From positions 124,001-188,000 of the forward strand of contig MPCU01000005.1 of assembly GCA_001874305.1 (NCBI GenBank): DNA of 64,000 nt, read 5' to 3'. This document shows, piece after piece, positions 745 through 57,458 of the stretch. The position numbers were made by a program, and so were the translations under genes. Every line of letters starts with the position of its first letter. The stretch's first letter is position 1. The DNA comes from Bacteriovorax sp. MedPE-SWde. Its GTDB lineage: Bacteria; Bdellovibrionota; Bacteriovoracia; Bacteriovoracales; Bacteriovoracaceae. Under the pieces are notes generated by a model, which worked only from the letters and a program-made list of their open reading frames with translations, did not search any database and was not told where the DNA came from.

Positions 745-2187
745 CTACCTAAGTTTATATAAGCTATATTCATTAATTGTTGAAAGCTTTTGAGAGTTTA
801 AAATTAATGAATAACATGGATTATCAATATCAGCTCTTATAAGAGCATACTTAAACATTTTAAACTCTTCTAAATTTTCATCGCTTGAACAGCTTTTAGT
901 AAAATAAGCAGCAGGATTATGCTGATATTGAATTACTCGCATATTCAAAGGCGCATAGTACTGTTGTGACAAATTATCAGAATATAAGAGAGATTTAGAT
1001 GAAGGGTCTATATGCTTCCAAAAAGCAGTTAGAGGTATAACTTTCTTGATAACTTCATCTTCACTTAGATTAATATAATTCTTAGTCATCTTCTTAATTC
1101 TACTAAATGATTTATCTATCTTAGAATCTACCAGGCAGAGTATGAGTAGGATAATTGGCACATAGGTCTTCTTTGGAAGGACATTGCTAATATTACTAAA
1201 GATGTAATAAACCAATACAAAATATGCTGGAAATAAGAATCTAACTGCAGTTACACCACCATTTAGAAACATCATTATAGCGAAACTTGAAAATAAAAAG
1301 TACATAACCTTATTAGAATCATTTCTCTTATCAAGTATATTTTTAACAAAACATACCAAGGATAAAAGAAAAACAACTTTGCCTAGAAATAAGCTTTTAA
1401 TGTTCATCATAATAGAAACAAAAGTAGGCTTTGAAGACATATGATGTGAATAATAATCAATCATTGCTTGAGAAGCTGATCCTGGGATTTGTTCGATGAG
1501 ACCAGGAAAAAGAGGATTTCCAATATAATAGTAATTTCTAAAAAGTATAGGGCCCCAAGTTAATAGAGCAATAAGTGCAACAGATAGAACTTGAAGAGGT
1601 TTCTTTAAATGTAAATAAGTAAAAGTTAATGCAATTGGTATTATGTAGAGAATACCTGAACCCTTAATTGAAGGCGCTAAACCTAATAGAAACCCAAGTG
1701 TAATAAGCTCTTTTTTGCTAAGGGAATCTTTAACTCTTACTCTTTCGAAAAAGATATAGAGTAAGAGGATTGATAGGGCCAAAGGGCCATCGTTTTTAGC
1801 ATAAAGAAAGAAAGAAGATCCTTTAGCGATAGTTAGCAATGAAATACCTGCTAAAGCGGCATATACCTTGTCTTTATTCTTAATAGAATTAAAGACGAGA
1901 ATTGAGCCAATTCCTAGAGAGAAGAAATAATGTAGGAATTGAGAAGATACATGAGCTTTAAGCCCATAATCAAAAATATAATGTGGAATAACATATAAGA
2001 ACTCAAAAAAACCAGACATGAGAGAGCCTGGTATTGTTGTCCAGGCCTCAGTCCAAAGTCCATTTGAAAGATATTTTGCAATTACTATATGATAGTTTAT
2101 CGCATCAACATGTCCGTATATTACAAAGCTTTCAAGTGTTTTTAGTAAGAATATAATACCAAAAATTACAAAGAGAGAGCGTTTCAT
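745..2187 (-). CDS. polytopic membrane protein, GT-C/PMT-like glycosyltransferase
   Basis: A 480-residue protein of repeated hydrophobic segments after a short charged start. An aspartate in the first extracytoplasmic loop (VDAINYH, D28) sits where GT-C/PMT_2 glycosyltransferases have their catalytic acid. Such enzymes use polyprenyl-phosphate sugars to decorate glycans or lipids on the outer face of the membrane. Its start overlaps the stop of the GT2 gene at 2184 by four bases (ATGA), and that GT2 is the type that makes polyprenyl-phosphate sugar, so the two probably work as donor synthase and transferase. The substrate is unknown. Call from topology and context. Confidence 0.6.
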   Translation of the reverse strand: MKRSLFVIFGIIFLLKTLESFVIYGHVDAINYHIVIAKYLSNGLWTEAWTTIPGSLMSGFFEFLYVIPHYIFDYGLKAHVSSQFLHYFFSLGIGSILVFNSIKNKDKVYAALAGISLLTIAKGSSFFLYAKNDGPLALSILLLYIFFERVRVKDSLSKKELITLGFLLGLAPSIKGSGILYIIPIALTFTYLHLKKPLQVLSVALIALLTWGPILFRNYYYIGNPLFPGLIEQIPGSASQAMIDYYSHHMSSKPTFVSIMMNIKSLFLGKVVFLLSLVCFVKNILDKRNDSNKVMYFLFSSFAIMMFLNGGVTAVRFLFPAYFVLVYYIFSNISNVLPKKTYVPIILLILCLVDSKIDKSFSRIKKMTKNYINLSEDEVIKKVIPLTAFWKHIDPSSKSLLYSDNLSQQYYAPLNMRVIQYQHNPAAYFTKSCSSDENLEEFKMFKYALIRADIDNPCYSLILNSQKLSTINEYSLYKLR

Positions 2188-55412: not shown

Positions 55413-56593
55413 TATGATTTAGCCTTAATTGTTTCAATTGTAGTGAATGCCCATACGGCCATAATGAGAAACATGTTCTCTCCATCTCCAAAAGTATATT
55501 GAAACAATCCCGAAGTGAAGAATCCAATAAAAAATGGAAACCCTATAAAACTGTATTTATACGTTTCTATTCCCCAAAAAAGACAAAATGCTAAGAAGGC
55601 TATTGCCCCAACGGCTCCAGTTGAAGCTAAGTGTTCAAGGAAGTTGTTATGGGCATGACCACTTTGGTATTTAAAAGGAATATTATACTTTTCCTTAAGG
55701 GCTTTGGAATTAGACTCGAAGTTCTTATATCCAAAACCAAAAAGTGGTCTTTCTGAGAATGCTTTATAAGCAGTATGATAGAACGCTATTCTCTGTGCGT
55801 TCGAACCTTTCCTTTTTAGAACTGTATCTCTAACAGATTGCGAGCCCGTAAAAATAGCTCCAGCCGCTATTACTGAGACAGCAATAATTGAAAGGAAGAC
55901 TTTCTTATTTTCTTTGAATAGAAAAAATGGAGTTGCAACTAAAAAGGCAATCCATCCACCTCGAGCATAAGCAAGAAACAAACCAGCGAAGTTTATAAGC
56001 CATGAAATATAAAGAAAGTACTTATTTATATTAGGTGCAAACTTTTCTCTTTTTAAAATGAGACCAGTAAGTAGAATTTGAAAAAGAGCTATTCCATAAC
56101 CATAAGTCATGTACATACCGTACAGTCCACAGGCCCTCGTTTCGTGACATGCGTTTTTAAATTTTAATGGATTAAAACCTGTTGCGAGTCCAACTAGTCC
56201 AGATATCGTTGCAATAGTTGTTGCAGTTATGAATAGGTATAACAGAAATTTCTTCTTTTTATCATCAAGGTAATCTCTGAGAAGATAATAGTAAGCAAAG
56301 AGTCCCATTGCTGGGAGCACGAAATATTTAAACTTAAAAAGATTTTTTACAGGCTTTTCAAGTATATCTAAATTAAAAACAACTGATAAGAATATAGAAA
56401 CGATAATTGCTATTACGGCCCAGAATGATCCTGGAAGTCTAAAGTCTTTTTTCTTTACGTATTCATATGTAAAGTAGCCGCCAGGAATTGCGATTAGTAT
56501 GTGTGAAAGTGCACTAAAGCTCATCGATGTAAAAACACCTGCGCATAGTACAAAAATCGAAGCTAATGTTAGTTTGAATGAAAGTGTTCTCAT
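55412..56593 (-). CDS. O-antigen ligase family protein (WaaL/Wzy_C)
   Basis: 393 residues with about 11 helices. RPLFGFGYKNFE and YQSGHAHNNFLEHLASTGAVG form the Wzy_C motif with the conserved His-Asn, and LAYARGGWIAF precedes them. It is the clearest O-antigen ligase-like protein of the three in this window and may join finished glycan to lipid A core. First gene of the minus-strand operon ending at 50524; its promoter should lie in the gap to 57120. Confidence 0.85.
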   Translation of the reverse strand: MRTLSFKLTLASIFVLCAGVFTSMSFSALSHILIAIPGGYFTYEYVKKKDFRLPGSFWAVIAIIVSIFLSVVFNLDILEKPVKNLFKFKYFVLPAMGLFAYYYLLRDYLDDKKKKFLLYLFITATTIATISGLVGLATGFNPLKFKNACHETRACGLYGMYMTYGYGIALFQILLTGLILKREKFAPNINKYFLYISWLINFAGLFLAYARGGWIAFLVATPFFLFKENKKVFLSIIAVSVIAAGAIFTGSQSVRDTVLKRKGSNAQRIAFYHTAYKAFSERPLFGFGYKNFESNSKALKEKYNIPFKYQSGHAHNNFLEHLASTGAVGAIAFLAFCLFWGIETYKYSFIGFPFFIGFFTSGLFQYTFGDGENMFLIMAVWAFTTIETIKAKS

Positions 56594-56691
56594 GCAGGTA
56601 TTCTACTTTGAAAGTTCTGACTTTAATATTGAAAAATCTCTAAGTGTTTAAGAATGTGTGGTGGTGACAGGGCTTGCTGTAATGTACACAA

Positions 56692-56762
56692 ATGAAGTCT
56701 TCCGTAATTTTTTGCTCCAATGGAGGAGCCCTTGAACAAAGGAAAGTTATGGAAGACTTCAT
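56692..56762. repeat. 71-bp imperfect palindrome (foldback)
   Basis: The arms 56692-56713 and 56741-56762 pair over about 22 positions; the outer 12 are perfect and the rest hold four or five G-T wobbles. A small GCTCC/GGAGC hairpin sits in the loop. Because of the symmetry, both strands read nearly the same short peptide (MKSS...LEQ...EDFI). That favours a DNA or RNA structure over a gene. Confidence 0.6.
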
Positions 56763-56800
56763 AAGGGTGCTGACTCTTGAAATCCCTCTTGTAATTCTCA

Positions 56801-56820
56801 TGCTGCAACTAGTTGTAGCA
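56801..56820. repeat. 20-bp near-perfect palindrome
   Basis: TGCTGCAACTAGTTGTAGCA has one G-T wobble between its two halves and no loop. Palindromes of this kind can bind dimeric proteins; it may also be part of the hairpin group around it. Confidence 0.5.
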
Positions 56821-56847
56821 CTTGTAGAATTATTTAAGTAGGCTTTG

Positions 56848-56872
56848 AGGTGAGTGTAAATGGCACTCACCT
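56848..56872. repeat. 9-bp stem hairpin
   Basis: AGGTGAGTG and CACTCACCT flank a seven-base loop. No T run follows on the plus strand, so it is not a clear terminator. Confidence 0.5.
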
Positions 56873-57119
56873 ACCTTATGAATTCTAGCATGGGTTTCTG
56901 GTTAAATTCAAAATTCAAAATTTATTTTGTGGGGTACGCGCGTCCGTATCGTGATTACGTGTGTTTATGTAGAATATGGTGGGTGAAGTTACTAATGCAT
57001 TAAGCTATACTGAAGACAGGCCAATCCGCCCATGCATTGATGTCACTGTGGTGACACAATTCACAACGGTAAAGCTCTGACATTAAAACGCTAACGCGTT
57101 CCAGCGCAGGCAGGATCTT

Positions 57120-57458
57120 ATGGAATATAATTTCGCAACAAAGCATGATTTACGTGAACACACATTTATCACAAGCGCTGATCTAAAAGACACGCGTCTT
57201 TCTTTTGAAAAGCGTTGCGATGAGCTGGACCAAAAGTTTGATAAGCGTTGTGATGAGTTGGATCAAAAGTTTGATAAGCGTTGTGATGGGTTAGACCAAA
57301 AAATTGATAAGCGTTTTGACGAGTTAGATCAAAAAATTGATGGTTTGAGATTAGAAATGAATCAAAGGTTTACTCAGTTGGAAAATAAATTAACGATTAA
57401 ACTTGGTGGTTTGCTCGCTCTGTCTGTTGGATTAATGAGTGTGGTTACAAAACTTTAA
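57120..57458 (+). CDS. small coiled-coil protein with 11-residue repeats and C-terminal membrane helix
   Basis: 112 residues. After a 30-residue start come four copies of an 11-residue unit (KRCDELDQKFD and variants), then a further coiled-coil stretch and a hydrophobic tail (LGGLLALSVGLMSVV) that should anchor it in a membrane. AGGAT lies five bases before the ATG. Function unknown. Codon choice and the GC-richer leader differ from the polysaccharide genes, which hints at separate origin. It may oligomerise through the coiled coil. Confidence 0.65.
   Translation: MEYNFATKHDLREHTFITSADLKDTRLSFEKRCDELDQKFDKRCDELDQKFDKRCDGLDQKIDKRFDELDQKIDGLRLEMNQRFTQLENKLTIKLGGLLALSVGLMSVVTKL
57210..57341 (+). 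repeat. four tandem 33-bp repeats in the coiled-coil gene
   Basis: Units at 57210, 57243, 57276 and 57309, each 33 bases and in frame. The first two code for identical peptides; the third has Gly for Glu and Ile for Phe; the fourth Phe for Cys and Ile for Phe. Copy number could vary between strains. Confidence 0.85.

What the first reader, a model, noticed from the sequence alone, without database searches (positions are those of the whole stretch)
56692..56872. Run of three palindromes, including a 71-bp foldback that reads alike on both strands
The largest has arms of about 22 positions with an inner hairpin. It gives a short open frame with almost the same peptide on both strands (MKSS...LEQ...EDFI), a sign of structure rather than coding. 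Two more inverted repeats follow within 110 bases. This may be a small non-autonomous mobile element, a REP-like unit or a structured RNA.
Basis: seen in the sequence. Interest (0 to 1): 0.5.

Follow-up and report, generated by a model that had tools for sequence, protein, structure and literature searches.

The report
Tiny toxin gene with RNA lock
The three palindromes belong to a tiny gene for a 30-residue greasy peptide whose messenger RNA folds up to hide its start signal and which is followed by a promoter for an opposing RNA, so it looks like a new family of the self-poison and RNA-antidote pairs called type I toxin-antitoxin modules, in predator-type bacteria.

Summary
The palindromes are real (RNA fold z = -8.1), but they are parts of a gene. 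The right arm of the foldback holds the start codon of a 30-aa hydrophobic peptide (56749-56841, MEDFIRVLTLEIPLVILMLQLVVALVELFK). The third palindrome is the hairpin after its stop codon. A covariance model found 113 matches (E <= 0.1) in 39 of 129 genomes of the same family (records titled Halobacteriovoraceae or Bacteriovoracaceae) and, at E <= 0.001, none in the 239 other genomes searched in the phylum. Copies are dispersed or in tandem.

Three things are conserved: the peptide (typical in 82 of 97 copies; pN/pS 0.37); RNA helices with compensatory changes, including one between codons 4-6 and the 3' end; and a promoter for an antisense RNA just downstream (25 of 25 first copies; supported on 70 later copies).

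Best explanation: a new type I toxin-antitoxin family that works like hok/Sok and aapA/IsoA, with a faintly TisB-like peptide below Pfam's cut-off. Toxicity and the antisense RNA are inferred, not shown. The 'REP-like' idea fits a separate repeat at 56933-56954.

The parts
56692..56711 (+). P1 left arm: 5' UTR strand that pairs with the start region
   Evidence: family P1 83% of cells paired over 24 copies
56714..56729 (+). P2: inner hairpin with a conserved loop (A-x-U-G, then mostly A-A-G)
   Evidence: 100% of cells paired in 24 copies, 3 of 4 pairs with changes on both sides
56730..56742 (+). P3: small CCUU/AAGG hairpin that pairs the Shine-Dalgarno
   Evidence: fold; not tested for covariation
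56738..56743 (+). Shine-Dalgarno AAAGGA, 5 nt before the ATG
   Evidence: sequence; mean unpaired probability of SD positions 0.07 in the window copy
56743..56762 (+). P1 right arm, covering the start codon and the first codons
   Evidence: AUG unpaired probability 0.00
56749..56841 (+). ORF, 30 aa hydrophobic peptide, putative type I toxin
   Evidence: conserved; pN/pS 0.37
56758..56766 (+). P6 5' arm TTCATAAGG (codons 4-6)
56801..56820 (+).
   Evidence: family P4 86% of cells paired, 5 of 7 pairs with changes on both sides
56848..56872 (+).
   Evidence: 91% of cells paired, 7 of 10 pairs with changes on both sides
56874..56882 (+). P6 3' arm CCTTATGAA, complementary to codons 4-6
56882..56887 (-). 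-10 box TAGAAT of predicted antisense promoter (extended: TGC TAGAAT, TG element in sense bases 56888-56890)
   Evidence: score 11.1, above all 100 shuffles
56906..56911 (-). -35 box TTGAAT of predicted antisense promoter, spacer 18
56692..56875 (-). Predicted antisense RNA (antitoxin), start near 56875; 3' end inferred near the foldback
   Evidence: inferred; transcript not shown, terminator signal weak
56933..56954 (+). Neighbouring REP-like repeat GGTACGCGCGTCCGTATCGTGA (not part of the module)

Best explanation
This is a type I toxin-antitoxin-like module. The + strand makes a short mRNA for a 30-aa peptide that looks like a single membrane helix (putative toxin). The mRNA is born locked: the 5' arm pairs with the start codon (P1) and a small hairpin pairs the Shine-Dalgarno (P3). 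When the 3' end is made, it can fold back onto codons 4-6 (P6). A - strand promoter just past the 3' end drives an antisense RNA across the gene; this RNA would bind the mRNA and keep it silent or have it degraded. If antisense RNA falls or the mRNA is trimmed, the start is freed, the peptide is made and the membrane is damaged or the cell goes dormant. Supported by sequence: peptide conservation, helices with compensatory changes, antisense promoter. Inferred: transcripts, processing, antisense repression, toxicity.
For: Peptide: 82 of 97 copies keep a typical ATG-started peptide of 22-30 aa; GRAVY 1.18-1.72 and pooled pN/pS 0.37 over 170 pairs of 19 intact ORFs. Copies: 113 matches in 39 of 129 family genomes; of 99 at E <= 4.4e-5, 9 neighbouring pairs lie under 600 nt apart. 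RNA: 42 pairs, 88.6% of cells paired, 136 cells with two-sided changes against 50.4 shuffled, slid versions 38-49% paired. RNAalifold found the core of P6 unaided. Among 72 copies outside the first 25, 53 were testable for P6, with 37 distinct arm combinations: 168 of 222 variable positions paired against 135.7 (max 153) permuted. Antisense promoter: 25 of 25 first copies have TTG, spacer 17/18 and the expected position (shuffles 41 of 500); mean score 9.22 against 5.80 shuffled; later copies 8.33 against 5.58 (70 of 72 testable).
Against: No transcript or toxicity data. No sigma-70-like sense promoter upstream (mean 3.77, below the shuffle mean 4.69). In the window copy P1 runs through codon 5 and shares TTCAT with P6; the predicted fold keeps P1 and leaves the P6 3' arm open, and cutting off that arm does not free the AUG, so the unlocking step is unexplained. 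Pairing of the start is only moderately unusual: mean unpaired AUG 0.13 in 94 copies (74 under 0.2) against 0.29 in 10 ordinary genes of the window (5 under 0.2), SD 0.40 against 0.54. Some pair measures do not beat shuffles: number of pairs with two-sided change 20 against 17.2 (27 of 500 as high), pair types 50 against 50.3; likewise for P6 and P1 alone. Some later copies pair badly at P6 (3-5 of 9). Singly, 18 of 25 first copies beat at least 95 of their 100 promoter shuffles and only 36 of 70 later ones at least 48 of 50. Fifteen of 97 copies lack a typical peptide.
Confidence: 0.78

Rival explanations
1. A small stress-induced membrane peptide with a house-keeping or signalling role, whose mRNA is controlled by structure and antisense RNA but which is not a toxin.
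For: All sequence evidence fits any tightly repressed hydrophobic peptide.
Against: Patchy distribution (matches in 14 of 48 genera), tandem and dispersed copies and broken copies that still score high with the RNA model (4 of the first 25: 118-147 bits; three of these four are in the model) are the pattern I expect of type I TA loci rather than of a house-keeping peptide (expectation recalled).
Confidence: 0.15
2. A small non-autonomous mobile element (MITE, REP or BIME), the palindromes being its ends or body.
For: In G161 (Halobacteriovorax marinus isolate 36_234_T64), 1 of 7 pattern copies lies in a 383-bp unit with 18-bp inverted repeats, and 5 of 7 have the 3' repeat at 189-193 nt from the ATG. 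A REP-like repeat lies at window 56933-56954.
Against: The own genome has a single module copy. Peptide and helix conservation and an antisense promoter are not explained. The window's repeat occurs once in the window and, by comparison with the paired copies, points away from the module.
Confidence: 0.03
3. A structured non-coding RNA (for example a regulatory sRNA); the ORF is incidental.
For: z -8.1; 15 of 97 copies lack a typical peptide, and four first copies with a broken ORF still score 118-147 bits with the RNA model.
Against: pN/pS 0.37 and a typical peptide in 82 of 97 copies.
Confidence: 0.04

Closest known systems
aapA/IsoA (Helicobacter pylori type I TA)
   Same: Several chromosomal copies, short peptide, Shine-Dalgarno-hiding hairpins, 5'-3' long-distance interaction in the full-length mRNA, cis-overlapping antisense RNA (PMC6733600, passages).
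   Different: Here the 3' arm pairs with codons 4-6, not with the SD; no aapA sequence was compared; 3' trimming and toxicity untested.
hok/Sok (E. coli)
   Same: Translationally inert fold of the mRNA (passage) and cis-acting antisense RNA (passage).
   Different: No Pfam Hok-family match in 15 peptides at E <= 10; no conserved frame from the P2-loop AUG as a leader ORF.
tisB/IstR-1 (E. coli)
   Same: Peptide of similar size (29 aa) with polar residues on one side (ours judged by eye); sub-threshold Pfam TisB_toxin match in 5 of 15 peptides; inhibitory 5' UTR structure (PMC8309996, passages).
   Different: Best 17.3 bits against a cut-off of 25, two peptides in different registers, window peptide no match; IstR-1 is trans-acting, here the antisense promoter is in cis.
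txpA/ratA, bsrG/SR4 (Bacillus)
   Same: Antisense RNA overlapping the toxin gene (bsrG/SR4 cis-acting; 3'-end overlap recalled).
   Different: No Pfam match to any toxin family other than TisB at E <= 10.

Membership tests
Type I toxin-antitoxin (class) | Gene for a small hydrophobic peptide under coding constraint | tested here: met
Type I toxin-antitoxin (class) | Antisense RNA gene at or near the locus | tested here: inconclusive
   conserved - strand promoter in cis; transcript not seen
Type I toxin-antitoxin (class) | Ribosome-binding region shut by mRNA structure | tested here: inconclusive
   P1 and P6 supported by paired changes and the window copy's SD and AUG are paired, but the contrast with 10 ordinary genes is moderate
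Type I toxin-antitoxin (class) | Peptide toxic, antisense RNA relieves it | not testable with these tools
   needs the bench
TisB family (PF13939) | Score at or above Pfam gathering cut-off | tested here: not met
   best 17.3 bits against 25; window peptide no match
Other Pfam type I toxin families (Hok, Ldr, Ibs, Fst, Hol_Tox; names recalled) | Any Pfam match | tested here: not met
   none at E <= 10 for 15 peptides; HMMER's filters drop most matches above E about 0.1
Any Rfam family | Gathering score reached | tested here: not met
   0 matches in the window; at E <= 5 in 56500-57200 only the microRNA family MIR7996 at 21.5 of 119 bits
REP or MITE element (for 56692-56872) | Many copies in the genome, bounded by element ends | tested here: not met
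   one module copy in own genome
aapA/IsoA family | Homologous peptide and SD-to-3'-end pairing | not tested
   no aapA sequence was compared; pairing site here is codons 4-6

The most novel reading that the evidence does not exclude
A new toxin-antitoxin family of predator-type bacteria in which, in the window's type of copy, two mRNA segments, the 5' arm and the 3' end, compete for the start-codon region itself. The 3' end co-evolves with codons 4-6 even where the amino acid changes. In at least one lineage REP-type inverted repeats have captured the whole module, so that a RAYT transposase could spread an addiction module.
Probability: 0.3. Interest if true: 0.75.

Novelty: new member of a known kind. 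Interest (0 to 1): 0.6.

Why it matters
[quoted passage not shown] A family with about 100 copies in Bdellovibrionota, with natural covariation that maps its RNA lock, would extend the class to bacteria that include predators of bacteria and give a ready comparative data set for how such mRNAs are kept silent. (Bdellovibrionota were formerly placed in Proteobacteria, recalled, so 'new phylum' depends on the taxonomy used.)

Tried and rejected
Rfam at gathering and at E <= 5: nothing credible. Pfam, NCBIfam, PHROGs and PDB searches of the peptides: nothing above a cut-off; five PHROG families without a name matched weakly (best E 0.011). Viral contigs: 0 matches of the pattern. Leader peptide from the loop AUG (hok/mok style, recalled): its frame relative to the toxin is scattered, 24/18/29 of 71. 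N-terminal MKSS extension: not conserved. Sense sigma-70 promoter: not found. A peptide search found only 4 of 129 genomes at E <= 1 and the exact pattern 11 of 129; the covariance model found 39. Literature: searches, in a library of openly licensed papers only, listed no paper that by its title or abstract start reports a type I TA system in Bdellovibrio, Bacteriovorax or Halobacteriovorax. Only listings were seen, except for passages of PMC12390103, PMC6733600 and PMC8309996.

Rows dropped: alignment A3 used 24 of 25 first copies (L040 left out for an insertion). pN/pS used 19 of 25: four copies have broken ORFs (L037, L040, L044, L048), and two of the 24-aa type (L038, L046) were left out for length. 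Of the 113 matches (E <= 8.3e-6) were fetched and analysed; 16 weaker ones were not. Promoter test on later copies: 70 of 72. P6 test on later copies: 53 of 72, the rest lacking a recognised start or the ACCT anchor. The 112 rows include repeats of the same place in overlapping loci; the 97 were picked by hand. The pair counts use a structure derived from these same sequences, so the slid controls lean its way; P6 was therefore retested without the alignment.

Full report
What is in the sequence. The three inverted repeats are confirmed. Reading the + strand through them gives a standard small gene: AAAGGA (56738-56743), a 5-nt gap, then ATG at 56749 and 30 codons to TAG at 56839-56841. The 71-bp foldback is the 5' untranslated region paired with the start region. 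The second palindrome lies inside the gene and the third is the hairpin after the stop. RNA energy is better on + than on - (-77.6 against -62.0 kcal/mol).

How it was recognised. A DNA search of 144 relatives hit the foldback in two family genomes (L014, L018). L018 has the unit three times in a row at 361-nt spacing, each encoding MEDFIRVLTLVTLILQLIVVVLEMTK. A search with the window peptide found six dispersed copies in G161. A DNA pattern (inner loop plus start region) found 23 copies in 11 of 129 family genomes with no match to the reversed control, and none in the 239 genomes of the phylum outside the family. In a collection of 84,980 species genomes a tighter pattern gave 20 matches in 19 stretches, all titled Halobacteriovoraceae, Bacteriovoracaceae or Halobacteriovorax. 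NCBI places Halobacteriovoraceae in Bdellovibrionota.

Extent of the family. A covariance model built from 24 copies gave 113 matches at E <= 0.1 in 39 of 129 family genomes, 14 of 48 genera, and at E <= 0.001 matches in 36 of 368 phylum genomes, all 36 in the family. Both searches used Infernal's stricter filters, so weak copies may be missed. The window copy scores 133.7 bits. It is the only copy found in its genome. Of its five genus mates searched, G003 has six matches and G005 two; G001, G002 and G004 have none. Of 99 matches at E <= 4.4e-5, 9 neighbouring pairs lie under 600 nt apart and 15 more under 6 kb.

The peptide. Consensus of 15 first copies MEDxIRVLTLIxLxLQLxxAILELxK, with M1, E2, D3, R6 and L19 (window numbering) invariant among them. 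Another large group reads like MEEMIRVLTLFILLLQLAVILRMN. Over the 92 of 97 copies with a recognised start, the peptides begin MEE 41, MED 39, MDD 5, MDE 5, MEG 1, MKE 1; 82 of 97 have a typical 22-30 aa peptide. Hydropathy fits a short membrane helix. Nei-Gojobori counts over 19 intact copies give pooled pN/pS 0.37. Synonymous sites here are also held by RNA pairing, so that figure probably understates the coding constraint. Pfam gives TisB_toxin below cut-off in 5 of 15 peptides (best E 0.0063, 17.3 against 25 bits). The two peptides shown align in different registers, so I take this as likeness, not membership. The window copy has four extra residues not seen in the other 14 aligned copies.

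The RNA. RNAalifold, given only the alignment, proposed the inner hairpin, the ORF hairpin, the 3' hairpin and a long-range helix between codons 5-6 and the bases after the 3' hairpin; it did not propose P1. With P1 added and the long-range helix extended to nine pairs over codons 4-6 (P6), 42 pairs are 88.6% paired over 24 copies. There are 136 cells with two-sided changes against 50.4 in shuffles (0 of 500), and slid structures fall to 38-49%. The number of pairs with any two-sided change (20 against 17.2) and of pair types (50 against 50.3) do not stand out. P6 alone is 90.2% paired with 31 against 14.2. P1 alone is weaker: 83.0%, 16 against 9.0, reached by 14 of 500 shuffles. P6 was then tested on copies found later, without the model's alignment: 168 of 222 variable positions paired against 135.7 (sd 5.1, max 153) after permutation, over 37 distinct combinations. 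Even amino-acid changes are matched: ATTTACAGG with CCTGTGAAT, ATAGCTAGG with CCTGGCTAT. A few combinations pair at only 3-5 of 9. U-G pairs in several combinations (for example five T/G at one position) fit pairing in the sense RNA and would be mismatches in the antisense RNA. In the window and G161 copies the predicted antisense start also lies inside the P6 3' arm; in other copies the -10 box is further out and the antisense RNA would contain more or all of the arm's complement.

The antisense promoter. In all 25 first copies the best - strand promoter in the 75 bases after the 3' hairpin has a TTG -35, a 17 or 18 spacer and a -10 box 10-21 nt from the CACC; 23 of 25 have the TG of an extended -10. 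Mean score 9.22 against 5.80 in shuffles (largest of 100 set means 6.50). Singly, 18 of 25 beat at least 95 of their 100 shuffles. The model covers only the first 12 or so of these bases. On later copies the mean is 8.33 against 5.58 (largest of 50 set means 6.14), 57 of 70 have the -10 at 8-24 nt, and 35 of 70 meet the full criterion against 156 of 1400 shuffles; 36 of 70 beat at least 48 of 50 own shuffles. Copies are related, so these are not independent trials. No such signal was found upstream for the sense strand in the 25 first copies.

Mechanism. In the window copy the Shine-Dalgarno and start codon are predicted to be paired (mean unpaired 0.07 and 0.00). Over 94 copies the contrast with 10 ordinary window genes is moderate (AUG 0.13 against 0.29, SD 0.40 against 0.54). 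In the window and G161 copies P1 extends into TTCAT, which P6 also needs, so the two are alternatives there, and the window fold prefers P1. In other copies, such as L033, P1 ends at codon 3 and both fit. This resembles aapA/IsoA, where SD-hiding hairpins act first and a 5'-3' interaction takes over in the full-length mRNA (PMC6733600, passages). It differs in that the 3' end targets codons 4-6. U runs favour ends near the two hairpins only mildly: four or more in 31 of 96 on the antisense side (background 0.17) and 52 of 97 on the sense side (0.22), five or more in 14 of 96 and 16 of 97. How the lock opens is not known.

Surroundings. The window copy lies between an O-antigen-ligase-type gene (Wzy_C) and a coiled-coil gene, with DegT aminotransferase and UDPGP genes beyond. 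The two multi-copy clusters that I looked at in other genomes also lie beside capsule or sugar-transferase genes and near PIN_3 or Gp49-type genes (10 of the 20 listed ORFs scanned). Two clusters are only a lead.

Verdict. The gene, the helices and the antisense promoter are well supported. 'Toxin-antitoxin' is an inference from architecture and spread, at about 0.78.

Noticed in passing
window 56933-56954; L075:1117-1877; L082:252-463; L077:206-447: A 22-bp repeat GGTACGCGCGTCCGTATCGTGA has at least 13 further places in this genome, some as inverted pairs 212 or 242 bp long. One 761-bp pair encloses a 213-aa Y1 transposase (PF01797, 39.9 against 23 bits) that also matches NCBIfam's REP-associated tyrosine transposase below its cut-off (52.3 against 80): probably a REP/RAYT system.
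   Followed up: partly
L084:251-633 and L085-L087 (G161, Halobacteriovorax marinus isolate 36_234_T64): The module is enclosed by perfect 18-bp inverted repeats GGTACGCGGTTACTTTTC in one copy (383 bp), and 5 of 7 pattern copies in that genome have the 3' repeat at 189-193 nt from the ATG (four measured, the fifth by subtraction). No target duplication was obvious.
   Followed up: partly
window 57026-57075: A second structured intergenic repeat, CCGCCCATGC-(variable hairpin)-CAACGGTAAAGC, is in 12 of 129 family genomes (18 places, no reversed-control match); by eye its inner stem varies by paired changes; no Rfam family matches.
   Followed up: partly
window about 56983-57160; compare L022 near 1400-1530 (- strand): By eye that repeat interrupts the start of a coiled-coil gene: the bases before it match the first codons of a relative's gene and the ORF 57120-57458 continues it (read).
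   Followed up: partly
window 57120-57458: 112-aa coiled-coil protein with near-identical repeats KRCDELDQKFD; no family above cut-off.
   Followed up: no
just upstream of P1 in L014, L042, L047, L053 (less clearly L049): In genus g10 a further palindrome (CTGCAC or CTGCAT ... GTGCAG or ATGCAG) lies just upstream of P1; it could be an operator or a 5' hairpin (read).
   Followed up: no
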